A stretch of DNA of 51,082 bases from Clostridiaceae bacterium (lineage in GTDB: Bacteria; Bacillota; Clostridia; Saccharofermentanales; Saccharofermentanaceae), in contig JAAYCT010000041.1 of the NCBI GenBank assembly GCA_012729635.1, positions 1-51,082 of the forward strand. Reading direction: 5' to 3'. The notes under the pieces were generated by a model, which searched no databases, had not been told where the DNA came from, and saw only the letters and a program-made list of their open reading frames with translations. The stretch's first letter is position 1, and each line of letters begins with the position of its first letter. The position numbers were made by a program, and so were the translations under genes. This document shows, in pieces, positions 15,645-22,903 of this stretch.

Positions 15645-15827
15645 GTGCATACTTTTCATAATAATCGCATCGCACCCACATATTCATCTTTGATAATGGC
15701 CTTACAAATGAATGGCTGTCACTCAGTATTTCGGTTGTCACCGGAATGTCATTCTATCGTCCAGCTATCCGCCGATGAGTCGATGGGACACCCGATTCAT
15801 CACAATACAATGTTCCGGAGGTATTCC

Positions 15828-17441
15828 ATGAAACGAAAAAAAGTCATCATGATCATCATCGCATGTATCGTCGTAGCCGGTATCGTCACAGTAGGAATTC
15901 TGTACACACGCGGATTATTCGGAAACTCCGAAGGAGAATCAAGCGTAGTCTGCTCCGTAGAAAATTTATCGACAGGCAGTATCGAGAAATCGGTCAGCGG
16001 GACCGGTACGCTTTCCGCGGGAAAAACCATCAGCGAAGTTGCTCCCGTAGATATGAAAATCGACACGGTGCTTGTTAAAGCCGGACAAACCATTCAGGCC
16101 GGTGAAACGATTGCAACGCTTAATACCGATTTTCTGGCAAACATGACGGATGATATCCAAACGGAAATCACTTCGATCGATTTGAAGTTGGCTCAACAAT
16201 TATCTTCCGAAGCGAGTGCCGCAAAACTCATGTCACAAGTGTCCGGAAGAGTCAAGCGGATCTATGCTAATACCGGCAGTAATGTGGATTCGGTGGTAGG
16301 CGAATCCGGAGGCCTGTTTGTCATTTCTGTCGACGGACGATTGAGGACGGAGATTATTTCGGAAACCGATGAACCCCTGACGGCGGGGATGACGGTAAAG
16401 GTCGTAACCGGTAATTCAACATACACCGGTCTGCTGGAAGAAGTGTCTTCCGACGGTAAACTCTGCACGGTAACGCTTACGGACAACGGTCCGAAAGCGG
16501 ATGCCGATGCAAAAGTCTATACCTCTTCGGGTACCTTCATCGGATCCGGCGCGCTGGAAATCAATCTACCCTATTATGTAACGGCGGCATCCGGCAGTAT
16601 TTCGGAGGTATATGTCAGTCTGAACGAAAAGGTCACTACCCGGACTGCGCTTGCCTATATTGTAGGAAAAGAAAAGTCCGAAACCTATGAAAAACTGGAG
16701 GCCTCACGCTCCGAATATGTTAAGACGCTTGAACTTGTGACGGATCTTCGGAATTCGGGCGTCATTACAGCCTCGCGAGGAGGAGCGGTTCAATCGGTCA
16801 TGATGATTGACGGACAAGATGTGAAGCAGGATGGATCTTTAATCGCTTTACTCATGACCGATACTTTCTCGATCGACGTATCGGTGGATGAGCTTGACAT
16901 CAATTATGTTTCTGCCGGACAGACGGCTTCCGTGAATGTCGATGCCGTTTCCGACAAAGTTTTTCAGGGAACGGTGGAAAGCGTATCACAGATCGGTACG
17001 ACGAATAACGGGGTCACCAATTTTACTGCGGTTATTCGGATAGATGCGGACGCGACGCTCCGAATCGGTATGAACGCAACGGTAACGATCGTGACCGAAA
17101 AGCATGAAAATGTTCTTCTTCTGCCGCTTGAAGCACTTCAAAGTATTCATGGGAAGCAATATGTGTGGCTATATAACGGAACACTTCCAAAAGACGGGGA
17201 ACAAAATCCAGGCATCTTTACAGAAGTACAAACCGGTCTTTCCAACGATAATTTTGTAGAAATCGTAAACGGGCTTTCGATCAATGACCGGGTTGTCATC
17301 GTACGGACCCTTTCCTCGCGAAGTACAAACGGACAGCAAAACGGAATGGGGTTCATGGGTATGACCGGAGAAAACCAACGATTCGCGAATGAAAGCAACC
17401 AGCCGGGGAACGGCCAGTTCGGTCCGCCCGCCGGAAGATAG
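15828..17441 (+). CDS. Periplasmic adaptor/HlyD-like membrane-fusion protein (YknX-like)
   Basis: A 537-residue adaptor for an ABC exporter. It has an N-terminal membrane anchor (about residues 6-27), a lipoyl-like domain (TVLVKAGQTIQAGETIATL), a second half-lipoyl and beta-barrel region (DVSVDELDINYVSAGQTASV), and a C-terminal tail rich in Asn, Gly, Gln and Met. The start at 15828 has GGAGG seven bases upstream; longer readings lack this. The ATPase gene follows after 16 bp. Such adaptors in Gram-positives work with MacB-type permeases in export of, or protection from, peptides and small toxins. The exported substrate is unknown. Confidence 0.88.
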   Translation: MKRKKVIMIIIACIVVAGIVTVGILYTRGLFGNSEGESSVVCSVENLSTGSIEKSVSGTGTLSAGKTISEVAPVDMKIDTVLVKAGQTIQAGETIATLNTDFLANMTDDIQTEITSIDLKLAQQLSSEASAAKLMSQVSGRVKRIYANTGSNVDSVVGESGGLFVISVDGRLRTEIISETDEPLTAGMTVKVVTGNSTYTGLLEEVSSDGKLCTVTLTDNGPKADADAKVYTSSGTFIGSGALEINLPYYVTAASGSISEVYVSLNEKVTTRTALAYIVGKEKSETYEKLEASRSEYVKTLELVTDLRNSGVITASRGGAVQSVMMIDGQDVKQDGSLIALLMTDTFSIDVSVDELDINYVSAGQTASVNVDAVSDKVFQGTVESVSQIGTTNNGVTNFTAVIRIDADATLRIGMNATVTIVTEKHENVLLLPLEALQSIHGKQYVWLYNGTLPKDGEQNPGIFTEVQTGLSNDNFVEIVNGLSINDRVVIVRTLSSRSTNGQQNGMGFMGMTGENQRFANESNQPGNGQFGPPAGR

Positions 17442-17457
17442 TAAAGAGGGAATACAC

Positions 17458-18132
17458 ATGATCGATATGAAAGAAATCGTAAAAAAATACCAAATGGGAA
17501 GCCAAACCGTCTATGCTCTGAACGGAGTTACGATGAAGATTTCGGACGGTGAATTTGTTGCGGTCGTCGGTCCTTCTGGAAGCGGAAAATCAACGCTCAT
17601 GAATATCATCGGATGTCTGGACGTCGCCGACAGCGGTCAGTATGAATTGAACGGCAAACCCATCGCAAAGTACAGCGAGCGTCAATTAGCGCGGATTCGC
17701 AACGAAAACATCGGTTTTATCTTTCAGGGTTTTAATTTGTTGCCGAATATCAATGCGCTCGAAAACGTTGAACTCCCCTTAATTTATCAAAACCTCAATC
17801 ACTCGCGAAGAAAAAAACAAGCGCTTGACGCCTTGGAGCGTGTCGGGTTGTCCGATCGGATCCGTCATCGACCCGGTGAGTTATCCGGAGGACAACAGCA
17901 ACGGGTAGCCGTAGCCAGAGCGATCGCCGGAAAACCGTCTATGATTCTGGCCGACGAGCCAACGGGGAATTTGGATACGAAAACAGGAAAAGAAATCATC
18001 GGCCTTTTAAGGGAACTGCACAATCAGGGAAACACGATCGTACTCATCACGCATGACTCGACCATCGCCGCGCAAGCGCAGCGGTGCGTCTATATAGAAG
18101 ACGGTTACGTGAAAGGAGGTGTCCGAACATGA
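17458..18132 (+). CDS. ABC transporter ATP-binding protein (MacB/LolD type)
   Basis: A 224-residue ATPase with Walker [11 protein letters not shown]-loop [11 protein letters not shown], signature [14 protein letters not shown], Walker [10 protein letters not shown] and the switch His in LITHDS. The NIIGCLD and NLLPN stretches are typical of the MacB/YknY/LolD exporter class. The ATG has AGAGGG eight bases upstream. It overlaps the permease gene by 4 bp (ATGA), so the two are translationally coupled. It powers the exporter formed with the flanking adaptor and permease. Confidence 0.95.
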
Positions 18133-19337
18133 TTATTCAATCCTTGAGAATGGCGTTCAAATCCATTCTGGCCAACAAAATGCGTTCCTTGCTTACCATG
18201 CTCGGTGTGATAATCGGCATAATCGCGGTTACGGTTCTGATCTCGATTGCACAAGGAACCACATCCAGTGTGACCTCCAGTATCGAATCATTGGGTACCA
18301 ATCTGCTTACCGTGAATATCCGAAGTTTTCGCAATAATTCTCTGACCGTCAACGGTCTGATTGAGTTCGCGGAGAAAGAATCGGAATCCATCGGGAATGT
18401 CGCACCGATTGTTTCTCAATCGGTCACTTCGAAAGCCGGAGACATCACCTATTCGGAAGGAACTTTGGAAGCGACCGTTCCCGGGTACGAAAAGATCCGA
18501 AATCTTTCTGTTGAATACGGAAGATTCCTGACGCAACCCGATCTTGACAACAGAAGTTATGTCGCCGTCGTCGGAACCGACGTGGCGGACGAGCTTTTCG
18601 GAACCCGGAATATTTTGGGAGAGAAAATTCGTATCAACGGCTACGAATTTTCCGTCGTCGGCGTTCTGGCCGAAAAAGGAACAACCGTTTCGGGCTCCTC
18701 CGATAATCGGATCATCATTCCGTTCACACTCGGGCAACGTCTCCTCTTCTCCACCGGTATTCGTACTTTCTATGTCTCCGCAAATTCGCCGGATGTCGTC
18801 ACCACGGCGCAGTCCGTTCTTGAAGAATATCTGAATGGCATTTTCAGCACAAGCACGGAAGTTTCCACATCCGGCGAAATCAGCAACAGTGCATATACCG
18901 TATTCAATCAAAGCGATATGCTTACAACCATCACCGATACCACAAACACACTCACGCTGATGCTCGGAGGAATCGCCGGCATTTCGCTTCTTGTCGGCGG
19001 TATCGGTATCATGAATATTATGCTGGTTTCGGTTTCGGAACGTACACGGGAAATCGGCATTCGGAAAGCGATCGGTGCGGCTCGCGGCGCCATTTTGATC
19101 CAGTTTCTTATTGAGGCGATCGTCGTGAGCGGACTTGGAGGAATCATCGGATTGCTTCTGTCCATGGGGCTGATCGTCATACTGACACAAGCATTATCGA
19201 TTTCATTGGCGTTGTCGCCGGCAGTGGCGGAATTTGCTATCGGATTTTCACTTCTGATCGGAATCGTCTTCGGAATGTATCCTGCCAATAAAGCATCCAA
19301 ATTGACCCCGATTGATGCGCTGAGATACGAAGGTTGA
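18129..19337 (+). CDS. MacB-type ABC transporter permease (FtsX-like)
   Basis: A 402-residue permease of MacB/YknZ type: one N-terminal membrane helix (about residues 20-45, MLGVIIGIIAVTVLISIA), a large extracytoplasmic MacB core domain, and three C-terminal helices with the conserved SVSERTREIGIRKAIGA stretch. The start has AAAGGAGG nine bases upstream. With the adaptor and ATPase it makes a mechanotransmission-type exporter rather than a classical channel. A hairpin follows the stop codon. Confidence 0.94.
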   Translation: MIIQSLRMAFKSILANKMRSLLTMLGVIIGIIAVTVLISIAQGTTSSVTSSIESLGTNLLTVNIRSFRNNSLTVNGLIEFAEKESESIGNVAPIVSQSVTSKAGDITYSEGTLEATVPGYEKIRNLSVEYGRFLTQPDLDNRSYVAVVGTDVADELFGTRNILGEKIRINGYEFSVVGVLAEKGTTVSGSSDNRIIIPFTLGQRLLFSTGIRTFYVSANSPDVVTTAQSVLEEYLNGIFSTSTEVSTSGEISNSAYTVFNQSDMLTTITDTTNTLTLMLGGIAGISLLVGGIGIMNIMLVSVSERTREIGIRKAIGAARGAILIQFLIEAIVVSGLGGIIGLLLSMGLIVILTQALSISLALSPAVAEFAIGFSLLIGIVFGMYPANKASKLTPIDALRYEG

Positions 19338-19343
19338 TCGTTC

Positions 19344-19386
19344 GGGAGGGCTTGTCTTCGCAAAAAAATTGGATGACAAGCCCCCC
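19344..19386 (+). terminator. Stem-loop after the permease gene
   Basis: GGGCTTGTC (19348-19356) pairs with GACAAGCCC (19375-19383), and flanking G and C runs extend it. No T tract follows directly, so it may attenuate rather than stop transcription. Confidence 0.5.
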
Positions 19387-19396
19387 GATGTATTTG

Positions 19397-19405
19397 TGCT
19401 ATGAT
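19397..19405 (+). promoter_or_regulatory. Extended -10 promoter of the two-component genes
   Basis: TGCTATGAT matches an extended -10 (TGnTATAAT) and lies 74 bp before the response regulator start. It would let the regulator pair be expressed apart from the exporter. Confidence 0.45.
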
Positions 19406-19478
19406 GATATCGGGACAGACGGAAATTACCGTAACTCAAGTTCATATCTCATTGTTCCCGCATTTCGGAGGAAGGAAA

Positions 19479-20159
19479 ATGACCCGTATACTGATCGTCG
19501 ATGACGAAGAGAGAATTCGATCGGCAATTCGCGAATATATCGAATTTGAAGAGTGGGAAGCTGTTGAAGCCAAGGACGGTATGGAAGCGGTGGAGCTGTC
19601 CCGAAACGACAAATTCGATATCATCATCATGGATATCATGATGCCGAGACTGGATGGGTATTCTGCGTGTAAAGAAATACGTAAGAGAAGCGATACTCCC
19701 GTTCTGATGCTCTCAGCACGGGGAGAAGAATACGATAAACTTTTCGGTTTTGAACTGGGTGTCGACGATTACGTAGTCAAACCGTTCAGCGGAAAAGAAT
19801 TGATCGCCCGCATCAAGGCGATATTGCAGCGAAGTCACGCCAAATTATTCGAGGATTGGGACGGGGTACCCGAAATCCAACTGCAAGGGTTGGTTGTTGA
19901 TTTTCGCGGCCGAAAGGTAATCGTTGATCATAATCCCGCGTCATTGACGCCCAAAGAATATGATTTATTATTTTTCCTGATCCGTAACCGAAATATCGCG
20001 TTATCTCGCGAGCAAATTCTTTCGAAGGTTTGGGGGTATGATTATTTCGGTGATAACCGGACCGTCGATGCTCATATAAAAATGCTCCGCTCAAACTTAG
20101 GTCCATATCGGAAACATATTGTTACCTTGCGGGGAATGGGGTATAAATTTGAAGCATAA
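19479..20159 (+). CDS. OmpR/PhoB-family response regulator
   Basis: A 226-residue regulator with a receiver domain (VDDE at residues 7-10, phospho-acceptor Asp52 in IMDIMMPRLDG, Lys101 in VVKPFSG) and a C-terminal winged helix (LTPKEYDLLFFLIRN, then VWGYDYFGDNRTVDAHI and RGMGYKFE). The ATG has GGAGGAAGG upstream. It overlaps the kinase gene by 11 bp if that gene starts at the TTG given below. The pair probably controls the adjacent exporter in response to envelope or antimicrobial stress; this is inferred from gene order. Confidence 0.94.
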   Translation: MTRILIVDDEERIRSAIREYIEFEEWEAVEAKDGMEAVELSRNDKFDIIIMDIMMPRLDGYSACKEIRKRSDTPVLMLSARGEEYDKLFGFELGVDDYVVKPFSGKELIARIKAILQRSHAKLFEDWDGVPEIQLQGLVVDFRGRKVIVDHNPASLTPKEYDLLFFLIRNRNIALSREQILSKVWGYDYFGDNRTVDAHIKMLRSNLGPYRKHIVTLRGMGYKFEA

Positions 20160-21630
20160 ATTGGATTCCCGAAGCATCGGGTTTCGAATATGGACTTATA
20201 TGATGCTGTTTTCACTGGCTGTTCTTATTTCTCTTTGGATGATGCAGACAGTTTTTATCAGTGTCTTTTATCAGGAAATGAAGACGGACAATATCAAGTC
20301 CGCATCTTCGGACATAGCAATTCTCTTCCGAAAACTTCAAGGACAGGCTCTCCAAGAACGGTTGACCGATTTGTCCAATGAAAAAGATCTGTTTATATAC
20401 ATAACGGACGATCAAGGGGAAAATATTTACGTGGTTAACCCCGTTGGCAGAGATTATCGCTCATCTGTCGAGAACGTGATGCCTCGCCTTCATGAGAATT
20501 TCAATCCGCAAGGCAAAGAAAACTTTTTCACCAACCCATTATCTGCCTTTTCGGCTCAGGTACTGGATAGTCCGGACGGAGAGCTCGAACAGACATTCGA
20601 TATAATGGGTATGAGAATGTTGCTTTTCGGCAAGACCATAACGGACCCGCGAGGCGAAGAAGCTGTGCTTATCGTCAGCTCGTCGCTTCAACCGCTCATG
20701 GAAACCATGCGTATCCTCAGGCGGCAGTTTTTATTTATCTCGTTTGTAGTATTTGCTCTGGCGTTCGGCGTGTCCGTCTTAATGGCAATTCACTTTTCCC
20801 GACCGCTTACGAAGATTACTCGAAAAGCGCATGCGCTTGCGGACGGTAAATATGACATCACGTTTGACGGAGGCGGCTACTCGGAGGCAACACAGCTTGC
20901 CGATACATTAAATTATGCAACCAACGCCCTACAGCAAGTGGAAAGCGTTCGCCGTGAACTGATTGCCAATGTTTCGCACGACCTGCGCACACCGTTGACC
21001 ATGATCCGATTGTATGCCGAAATGATCCGCGATTTTCCGCGTGACGATGAGAAGAAGCGCAATCAGAATGTCTCGGTCATCATTGAAGAATGTGACCGAT
21101 TAACATCGCTCGTCCAAAATCTGCTGGACCTGTCCCTCCTTCAATCCGGGGTGATTCCATATAATCCTTCCGAATTTGATTTATCGGAAACCGTTTTAAG
21201 ACTTATGCGACATTACGAACCCATGGCAAAAGACAGAGGCCAACGTATCACTTCCGATTTCCCGGAGCGTGTCCCGGTGAACGCCGACGAGACACTCGTC
21301 GAGCAGGTTCTTTGTAATCTCATCAACAACGCGTTTTCTTATGCGGGAGAAAACACTCATGTTCATATATCCCATCATGATCAAGAGGAAACGGTTCGAA
21401 TATCAGTCAGTGATGACGGCAAAGGGATTGCGGAAGATGAGTTGGAATTAATCTGGGATCGATATCATAAGATCCCCGGAGATAATGAAGCTTTCATCAC
21501 CGGTTCCGGCTTAGGTTTATCCATCGTTAAATCCGTAATGGATATGCATCGAATGAAGTTCGGAGTCAGCAGCATACAGGGACAGGGCTCAACATTTTGG
21601 TTTGAGCTTGAAAAATCAGAAGAAATTTGA
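20149..21630 (+). CDS. HisKA-type sensor histidine kinase
   Basis: A 493-residue membrane kinase. The first transmembrane segment is near residues 14-38 and the second near 194-216, around an extracytoplasmic region of about 155 residues. A HAMP segment follows, then HisKA with His277 in VSHDLRTPLTM and the ATPase domain (NLINNAFSYAG, DDGKGI, GSGLGLSIV). The start is uncertain: I use TTG at 20149 (GGGG eight bases upstream, overlapping the regulator stop); a TTG at 20119 is also open. It partners the preceding response regulator. Confidence 0.9.
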   Translation: MKHKLDSRSIGFRIWTYMMLFSLAVLISLWMMQTVFISVFYQEMKTDNIKSASSDIAILFRKLQGQALQERLTDLSNEKDLFIYITDDQGENIYVVNPVGRDYRSSVENVMPRLHENFNPQGKENFFTNPLSAFSAQVLDSPDGELEQTFDIMGMRMLLFGKTITDPRGEEAVLIVSSSLQPLMETMRILRRQFLFISFVVFALAFGVSVLMAIHFSRPLTKITRKAHALADGKYDITFDGGGYSEATQLADTLNYATNALQQVESVRRELIANVSHDLRTPLTMIRLYAEMIRDFPRDDEKKRNQNVSVIIEECDRLTSLVQNLLDLSLLQSGVIPYNPSEFDLSETVLRLMRHYEPMAKDRGQRITSDFPERVPVNADETLVEQVLCNLINNAFSYAGENTHVHISHHDQEETVRISVSDDGKGIAEDELELIWDRYHKIPGDNEAFITGSGLGLSIVKSVMDMHRMKFGVSSIQGQGSTFWFELEKSEEI

Positions 21631-21738: not shown

Positions 21739-21767
21739 TTGCATTTCCAATATATATTTGCTACAAT
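21739..21767 (+). promoter_or_regulatory. Promoter of the peroxidase-OhrR genes
   Basis: TTGCAT (21739-21744), 17-bp spacer, TACAAT (21762-21767), 45 bp before the peroxidase start codon. Confidence 0.75.
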
Positions 21768-21776
21768 TTGATTGTA
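21762..21776 (+). promoter_or_regulatory. Probable OhrR operator over the -10 box
   Basis: TACAATTTGATTGTA is an inverted repeat with 6-bp arms and a 3-bp centre. It closely resembles the TACAATT-AATTGTA element that I recall for Bacillus OhrR, and it covers the -10 hexamer, so a bound repressor would block the polymerase. The MarR/OhrR gene is the second gene downstream. Confidence 0.6.
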
Positions 21777-21811
21777 CTCAATTAATTCGAAAGCGATCGG
21801 AGGTGAATTGT

Positions 21812-22345
21812 ATGAACATATATGATTTTACGGTTAAAAACACAAAGAAAGAAGACGTATCCATGTCGGACTACAAAGGAAAGGTCCTTCTGATTGTCAA
21901 TACGGCGACCGGATGCGGATTTACTCCGCAATACGACGGTCTTTCCGACCTTTACGACAAATATCGCGACCGCGGATTTGAGGTGCTGGATTTTCCGTGC
22001 AACCAATTTCTCGGTCAGGCGCCGGGCACCGACGAAGAGGTAGCTCAGTTTTGCAAAATAAACTTCGGAACAAAGTTTCAGACCTTCGCGAAAATCAACG
22101 TGAACGGAAAAAACGCAGATCCGCTATTCACCTACCTCAAACAAAATGCACCCGATGATCTGGAAAATGAGGAATTCGGAGATTTCAAGAAGAAAATGAA
22201 GTCTTTTCTTCAGACACTTGCCGGGAAAGATATCAAATGGAACTTCACCAAGTTTCTGGTCGATCGGGAAGGACGGATCGTCGGACGGTTCGCTCCTTCC
22301 GTTACGCCCGAAGACCTCGAAGAGGATATCCTGAAATTATTGTAA
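21812..22345 (+). CDS. Thiol-type glutathione peroxidase
   Basis: A 177-residue peroxidase that reduces hydrogen peroxide and organic or lipid hydroperoxides in the cytoplasm. The catalytic tetrad is visible: peroxidatic Cys35 (TATGCGFTPQY), Gln69 (FLGQAPG), and Trp143-Asn144 (KWNFTKFLVD). It is a cysteine, not a selenocysteine, enzyme. Cys81 (QFCKINFG) is at the position of the resolving cysteine of thioredoxin-dependent members, so thioredoxin rather than glutathione is the probable reductant. The start has CGGAGG upstream; an earlier in-frame region has no ribosome site. It is followed by an OhrR-type regulator. Confidence 0.95.
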   Translation: MNIYDFTVKNTKKEDVSMSDYKGKVLLIVNTATGCGFTPQYDGLSDLYDKYRDRGFEVLDFPCNQFLGQAPGTDEEVAQFCKINFGTKFQTFAKINVNGKNADPLFTYLKQNAPDDLENEEFGDFKKKMKSFLQTLAGKDIKWNFTKFLVDREGRIVGRFAPSVTPEDLEEDILKLL

Positions 22346-22411
22346 TACTCCCGAGGCCGCAGAGCTCCACACAGCCTGCGGCTTAAACCTGTCTGCCGGA
22401 AGGAGGCGCCC

Positions 22412-22903
22412 GTGAAAACCACGAATTCGAATACGATCAATCCCGAATTTTCCGGAAGCAAAAACAAAAAAGAATCCGACAAAAAGGACCCTCTGCTTCT
22501 TGCTAATCAACTGTGCTTCCCGCTCTATGCCGCATCACGAAAAATAATACGCCTGTATACTCCGCTTCTCGAGCCGATTGGTCTGACATACACACAGTAC
22601 ATTACTCTGATGGTACTCTGGGAAGAGGACAGCACGAATATAAAATCGCTCGGAGATAGACTTCTTCTGGACTCGGGCACACTAACCCCGCTTTTGAAGA
22701 AAATGGAATCCGAAGGTCTGATTATTCGGAAGCGTGATCAAAATGATGAACGAAATGTTCGTGTATCTCTTACCGGAAAAGGACGCGCACTCAGAGAAAA
22801 GGCGGCGGAGATCCCGAACAGGATGAGCGAATGCATCCCGCTGGCGGCAGAGGATGTATCGACACTATACCGGATTCTTTACCGTTTAATTGACCAAAGC
22901 TGA
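22412..22903 (+). CDS. OhrR-type MarR family redox regulator (two-cysteine)
   Basis: A 163-residue winged-helix repressor. The region QLCFPLYAASRK with Cys35 matches the reactive-cysteine region of OhrR, and LDSGTLTPLLKKMESEG is the recognition-helix region typical of the OhrR subgroup of MarR. A second cysteine, Cys141, is spaced about as in the two-cysteine OhrR of Xanthomonas, so oxidation probably gives an inter-subunit disulfide. The GTG start has AAGGAGG five bases upstream. A charged N-terminal extension of about 25 residues precedes the domain. It probably represses its own operon, including the upstream peroxidase. Confidence 0.9.
   Translation: MKTTNSNTINPEFSGSKNKKESDKKDPLLLANQLCFPLYAASRKIIRLYTPLLEPIGLTYTQYITLMVLWEEDSTNIKSLGDRLLLDSGTLTPLLKKMESEGLIIRKRDQNDERNVRVSLTGKGRALREKAAEIPNRMSECIPLAAEDVSTLYRILYRLIDQS

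What the first reader, a model, noticed from the sequence alone, without database searches (positions are those of the whole stretch)
21739..22903. Peroxidase-OhrR pair with the operator on the -10 box
A thiol glutathione peroxidase, rather than the usual Ohr enzyme, is paired with a two-cysteine OhrR-type repressor. The inverted repeat TACAATTTGATTGTA overlaps the -10 hexamer. This is a rare partner swap: an organic-peroxide sensor controlling a GPx in a presumed anaerobe.
Basis: partly seen in the sequence, partly recalled or inferred. Interest (0 to 1): 0.6.

Follow-up and report, generated by a model that had tools for sequence, protein, structure and literature searches.

The report
Peroxide-sensor repressor with peroxidase gene pair
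An anaerobic bacterium carries a standard two-gene detoxification unit, a peroxidase and the peroxide-sensing repressor that probably controls it; the pairing has been tested experimentally in Pseudomonas aeruginosa and is common in related anaerobes, so it is ordinary.

Summary
A Cys-type GPx gene (21812-22345) is followed 66 bp later by a two-cysteine OhrR-type MarR repressor gene (22412-22903; C35 and C141). TACAATTTGATTGTA (21762-21776) begins with the putative extended -10 hexamer TACAAT, 17 nt after TTGCAT. The site matches the published B. subtilis OhrR box TACAATTNAATTGTA at 13 of 14 positions. The box, and a TTGACA-like hexamer 16-17 nt upstream of it, recur in front of homologous gpx/ohrR pairs far above control motifs.

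The claim of a 'rare partner swap' does not hold. P. aeruginosa gpx-ospR (PA2826-PA2825) has the same gene order, a two-cysteine OhrR homologue, organic-hydroperoxide induction and a repressor footprint over the promoter (PMC4999210). Among the 80 closest relatives of this OhrR in genome contigs, mostly gut and rumen anaerobes, 50 have a GPx in the fetched neighbourhood, nearly all next to it. The genome has no OsmC/Ohr gene, no heme-copper oxidase and no detected glutathione synthesis, but has a thioredoxin. The GPx keeps a three-cysteine pattern, so it is probably thioredoxin-dependent. This is a new member of a known kind and of low interest. Binding and peroxide response are inferred.

The parts
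21739..21744 (+). putative -35 hexamer TTGCAT
   Evidence: read; TTGC.. kept at the same distance in same-genus and same-family loci L086-L088; TTGACA-like at 16-17 nt from the box in 21 of 34 relatives' sites
21762..21767 (+). putative -10 hexamer TACAAT, preceded by TGC (extended -10)
   Evidence: read; 17 nt from the -35; identical to the left arm of the operator
21762..21776 (+). OhrR box TACAATTTGATTGTA (13/14 to TACAATTNAATTGTA)
   Evidence: consensus from PMC6034001
21799..21805 (+). Shine-Dalgarno GGAGGTG of the GPx gene
   Evidence: read
21812..22345 (+). GPx family peroxidase, 177 aa, Cys35 (TGCGFT), Cys63 (FPCNQF), Cys81 (FCKINFG)
   Evidence: Pfam GSHPx E 5e-39; the three Cys present in 56 of 56 aligned adjacent homologues
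22400..22406 (+). Shine-Dalgarno AAGGAGG of the ohrR gene
   Evidence: read
22412..22903 (+). OhrR-type MarR repressor, 163 aa, Cys35 and Cys141
   Evidence: best solved relative is the organic hydroperoxide resistance regulator 1z91/1z9c, E 8e-38; 2pfb OhrR E 3e-32; C35 in 95 of 95, C141 in 89 of 96 homologues

Best explanation
The two genes form one autoregulated operon of the OspR/gpx type. Reduced OhrR dimer sits on TACAATTTGATTGTA, which contains the -10 hexamer, and blocks RNA polymerase. An organic hydroperoxide oxidises Cys35 to a sulfenic acid, which forms an inter-subunit disulfide with Cys141 of the partner; the repressor releases and gpx and ohrR are transcribed. The GPx then reduces the peroxide through a Cys35 sulfenate resolved by Cys81 and is recycled by thioredoxin, since the genome shows no glutathione synthesis. 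Shown by sequence: gene order, cysteines, operator-promoter overlap, conservation. Inferred: binding, peroxide release, one transcript, thioredoxin as reductant.
For: OhrR identity: best solved match is the organic hydroperoxide resistance regulator 1z91/1z9c. Cysteine pattern: C35 in 95/95 and C141 in 89/96 relatives; C141 lies opposite, within one residue of, C127 of the solved OhrR 2pfb. Operator: 13/14 to the published box TACAATTNAATTGTA. In 54 upstream regions of homologous pairs, 16 have a box of 12/14 or better and 9 of 13/14 or better, against control means of 0.29 and 0.014 for 139 permuted palindromes (best control 4 and 2). A TTGACA-like hexamer lies 16-18 nt before the box at 21 of 34 sites, versus 3 hits at all 32 other distances together. 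GPx adjacency in relatives. Experimental precedent: P. aeruginosa gpx-ospR. No OsmC/Ohr family gene in the genome, no GSH-S_ATP or Glu_cys_ligase, a thioredoxin present.
Against: No binding or expression data. The window box has one mismatch in the right arm (G for A) and the -35 is poor. NCBIfam's only OhrR equivalog model is matched below its cut-off (159 against 200 bits); it is a Vibrio-type model. 16 of 54 homologous pairs have a strong box and 34 at least a moderate one; the rest have none by this scan. In P. aeruginosa an AATT-N-AATT box alone was not enough for OspR binding.
Confidence: 0.87

Rival explanations
1. The MarR protein is a more general redox or HOCl/disulfide-stress sensor of the SarZ/MgrA/AbfR type, with a wider regulon, and the GPx is only one of its targets.
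For: SarZ, MgrA and related regulators are also close solved matches; OspR and AsrR have pleiotropic roles.
Against: The best matches are OhrR proteins; the second cysteine is the 2-Cys OhrR/OspR pattern; the genome has only one further place within 1 mismatch of the box pattern, arguing for a local regulon.
Confidence: 0.1
2. The genes are merely adjacent; the palindrome is a chance AT-rich repeat on the -10 and the repressor acts elsewhere.
For: Up to 3 mismatches are expected by chance about once in the window; the window box is imperfect.
Against: Same-genus and same-family loci keep the box and its -35 spacing, permuted control palindromes do not reach the observed counts, and the match is to a published OhrR operator.
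Confidence: 0.03

Closest known systems
Pseudomonas aeruginosa gpx-ospR operon (PA2826-PA2825), PMC4999210
   Same: gpx upstream of a two-cysteine OhrR homologue in one operon, repressor footprint (+12 to -56) over the promoter, induction by organic/lipid hydroperoxides, both cysteines needed at gpx
   Different: the operator sequences differ (GCAATT-N-AATTGC and AATTCAA-N-TTGAATT there); P. aeruginosa also has ohrR-ohr, this genome has no OsmC/Ohr gene; host is an anaerobe
Bacillus subtilis OhrR-ohrA
   Same: closest solved repressor (1z91/1z9c; identification as B. subtilis from own knowledge); operator consensus TACAATTNAATTGTA
   Different: B. subtilis OhrR is of the one-cysteine class and controls Ohr, not GPx (own knowledge)
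Xanthomonas campestris two-cysteine OhrR (2pfb, 2pex)
   Same: N-terminal sensor Cys and a second Cys near position 127, aligned with C35 and C141
   Different: controls ohr (own knowledge); different box layout
Cys-type, thioredoxin-dependent GPx (plant GPx5 2p5q, yeast HYR1 3cmi)
   Same: catalytic Cys in place of Sec, FPCNQF, third Cys at the resolving position (role from own knowledge)
   Different: carries an insertion of about 18 residues before KWNF that splits the match to 26jk and 2p5q

Membership tests
two-cysteine OhrR/OspR (MarR family) | MarR winged-helix fold with closest similarity to OhrR | tested here: met
two-cysteine OhrR/OspR (MarR family) | N-terminal sensor Cys in NQLCF motif | tested here: met
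   C35; invariant in 95 aligned homologues
two-cysteine OhrR/OspR (MarR family) | second, resolving Cys near the start of the last helices | tested here: met
   C141 opposite C127 of 2pfb within one residue; 89 of 96 homologues
two-cysteine OhrR/OspR (MarR family) | OhrR box in the promoter of the neighbouring peroxidase | tested here: met
   13/14 to TACAATTNAATTGTA, conserved
two-cysteine OhrR/OspR (MarR family) | NCBIfam OhrR equivalog cut-off | tested here: not met
   159 of 200 bits to a Vibrio-type model; not a family-wide definition
two-cysteine OhrR/OspR (MarR family) | loss of DNA binding on oxidation by organic hydroperoxide | not testable with these tools
   needs EMSA with purified protein
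classical ohr-ohrR locus | Ohr (OsmC family) peroxidase next to ohrR | tested here: not met
   neighbour is GSHPx; no OsmC match in the genome
glutathione peroxidase family (GPx) | GSHPx domain with catalytic Cys/Sec and FPCNQF | tested here: met
   C35 and C63
glutathione peroxidase family (GPx) | glutathione as reductant | tested here: inconclusive
   no GSH-S_ATP or Glu_cys_ligase match in a 96.65% complete genome argues against; import and other ligase families not tested

The most novel reading that the evidence does not exclude
In anaerobic Clostridia and neighbours, OhrR sensing is coupled by default to a thioredoxin-recycled GPx (or to a TrxB-TrxA pair) instead of Ohr, with an extended operator ATTT-nn-TACAATT-n-AATTGTA-nn-AAAT on the -10 box.
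Probability: 0.5. Interest if true: 0.25.

Novelty: new member of a known kind. Interest (0 to 1): 0.12.

Why it matters
It gives a clean, testable example of organic-peroxide defence in an anaerobe with no detected Ohr or glutathione synthesis, and shows that the partner of OhrR in such bacteria is often GPx. It does not change the picture of how OhrR works.

Tried and rejected
A generic sigma-70 scan did not flag the promoter; conservation was used instead. A first run of the control script timed out through a loop error and was repeated. Two paper look-ups failed on term syntax. A first tally of promoter spacing used sites picked by eye; it was replaced by an unselected count. The idea of a rare partner swap was rejected on the P. 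aeruginosa precedent and on the neighbourhood counts. No structure was predicted because solved OhrR relatives already cover the protein. A literature search for an OhrR-GPx pair in clostridia gave no specific paper, but the library holds only open-licence papers.

Full report
What is there. The window holds a GPx-family gene at 21812-22345 and an OhrR-type MarR gene at 22412-22903 on the same strand, 66 bp apart, each with a good Shine-Dalgarno sequence. Upstream lies TTGCAT - 17 nt - TACAAT, and the -10 hexamer is the left arm of TACAATTTGATTGTA (21762-21776).

Identity of the proteins. The repressor's best solved relatives are 1z91/1z9c (organic hydroperoxide resistance transcriptional regulator) and the OhrR entries 2pfb and 2pex, alongside SarZ and ahead of MgrA. 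Both cysteines are conserved: C35 in all 95 aligned homologues, C141 in 89 of 96. The GPx matches Pfam GSHPx at 5e-39, with Cys at the catalytic site and two more, C63 and C81, present in all 56 aligned adjacent homologues. By my own knowledge of plant and yeast GPx, the third cysteine is the resolving one of thioredoxin-dependent enzymes.

The operator. The published OhrR box is TACAATTNAATTGTA (B. subtilis, A. tumefaciens; PMC6034001; also PMC5201249). The window site matches 13 of 14 positions. Upstream of 54 homologous gpx/ohrR pairs, 34, 16 and 9 carry a box of at least 11, 12 and 13 of 14, against control means of 2.7, 0.29 and 0.014 for 139 palindromes built from permuted half-sites. 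In the 34 sites a TTGACA-like hexamer stands 16 or 17 nt before the box 21 times, and at all the other distances from 5 to 39 nt only 3 times in total. So the box lies on the -10 hexamer as a rule, not as a peculiarity of this window. Positions outside the box, not used to select the sites, show a symmetric extension ATTT..AAAT: 26 of 34 sites match at least 3 of 4 on both sides. A pattern search of the whole genome found only one other place within one mismatch, so the regulon is probably local.

Is the pairing rare? No. Of the 80 best OhrR relatives in genome contigs, 50 have a GPx in the fetched flank and none an Ohr by a single-query search. Counting same-strand neighbours only, and adding genome relatives, 56 of 96 homologues other than the window have GPx next to them. 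In the window's own genus, family and order, 13 genomes besides its own carry GPx within about 1 kb of the OhrR homologue (coordinates). OsmC/Ohr is absent from this genome and passes the cut-off in only 4 of 39 genomes of the order, none in the same family. Experimentally, P. aeruginosa gpx-ospR is the same arrangement: gpx first, a two-cysteine OhrR homologue second, induction by organic hydroperoxides, footprint +12 to -56 over the promoter, both cysteines required at gpx (PMC4999210). In E. faecium, loss of the OspR-like AsrR raises both ohr and gpx (PMC3410868).

Lifestyle. No heme-copper oxidase was found and rubrerythrins are present, which fits an anaerobe; named relatives are mostly gut, rumen and other anaerobes. 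No match to GSH-S_ATP or Glu_cys_ligase was found, while a thioredoxin is present. In some Lachnospiraceae the same OhrR type follows a TrxB-like and a TrxA gene (L017), which is consistent with thioredoxin as the partner.

Mechanism and verdict. The best reading is an autoregulated gpx-ohrR operon repressed by steric block of the -10 region and released by disulfide formation between C35 and C141. Anatomy and conservation are shown here; DNA binding, oxidation response, co-transcription and the reductant are inferred. It is a new member of a known kind and ordinary.

Noticed in passing
L017 1692-2947 (also L038, L053, L062, L069, L070, L074): In some relatives, mostly Lachnospiraceae, a close OhrR homologue has, in place of GPx, a thioredoxin-reductase-like flavoprotein upstream; in L017 a thioredoxin gene (WCGPC) lies between it and ohrR.
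   Followed up: partly
upstream of gpx/ohrR pairs, e.g. L086, L032, L022, L094; window 21756-21782: The OhrR box has a symmetric outer extension ATTTnn-box-nnAAAT in most relatives; in the window ATTT is intact on the left and CAAT stands on the right.
   Followed up: partly
window 22356-22382: Perfect 7-bp G+C-rich inverted repeat GCCGCAG/CTGCGGC between gpx and ohrR without a T run; could reduce ohrR expression relative to gpx.
   Followed up: no
window 15645-21630: Upstream, same strand: an efflux-type membrane fusion protein, an ABC transporter ATPase and permease (MacB-like), then a response regulator and a sensor kinase, judged from the translations only.
   Followed up: no
L085 (G001:C65): The ohrR homologue of a same-genus genome lies at the edge of a contig and has one in-frame TGA in the match; no GPx was found in that assembly.
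   Followed up: no
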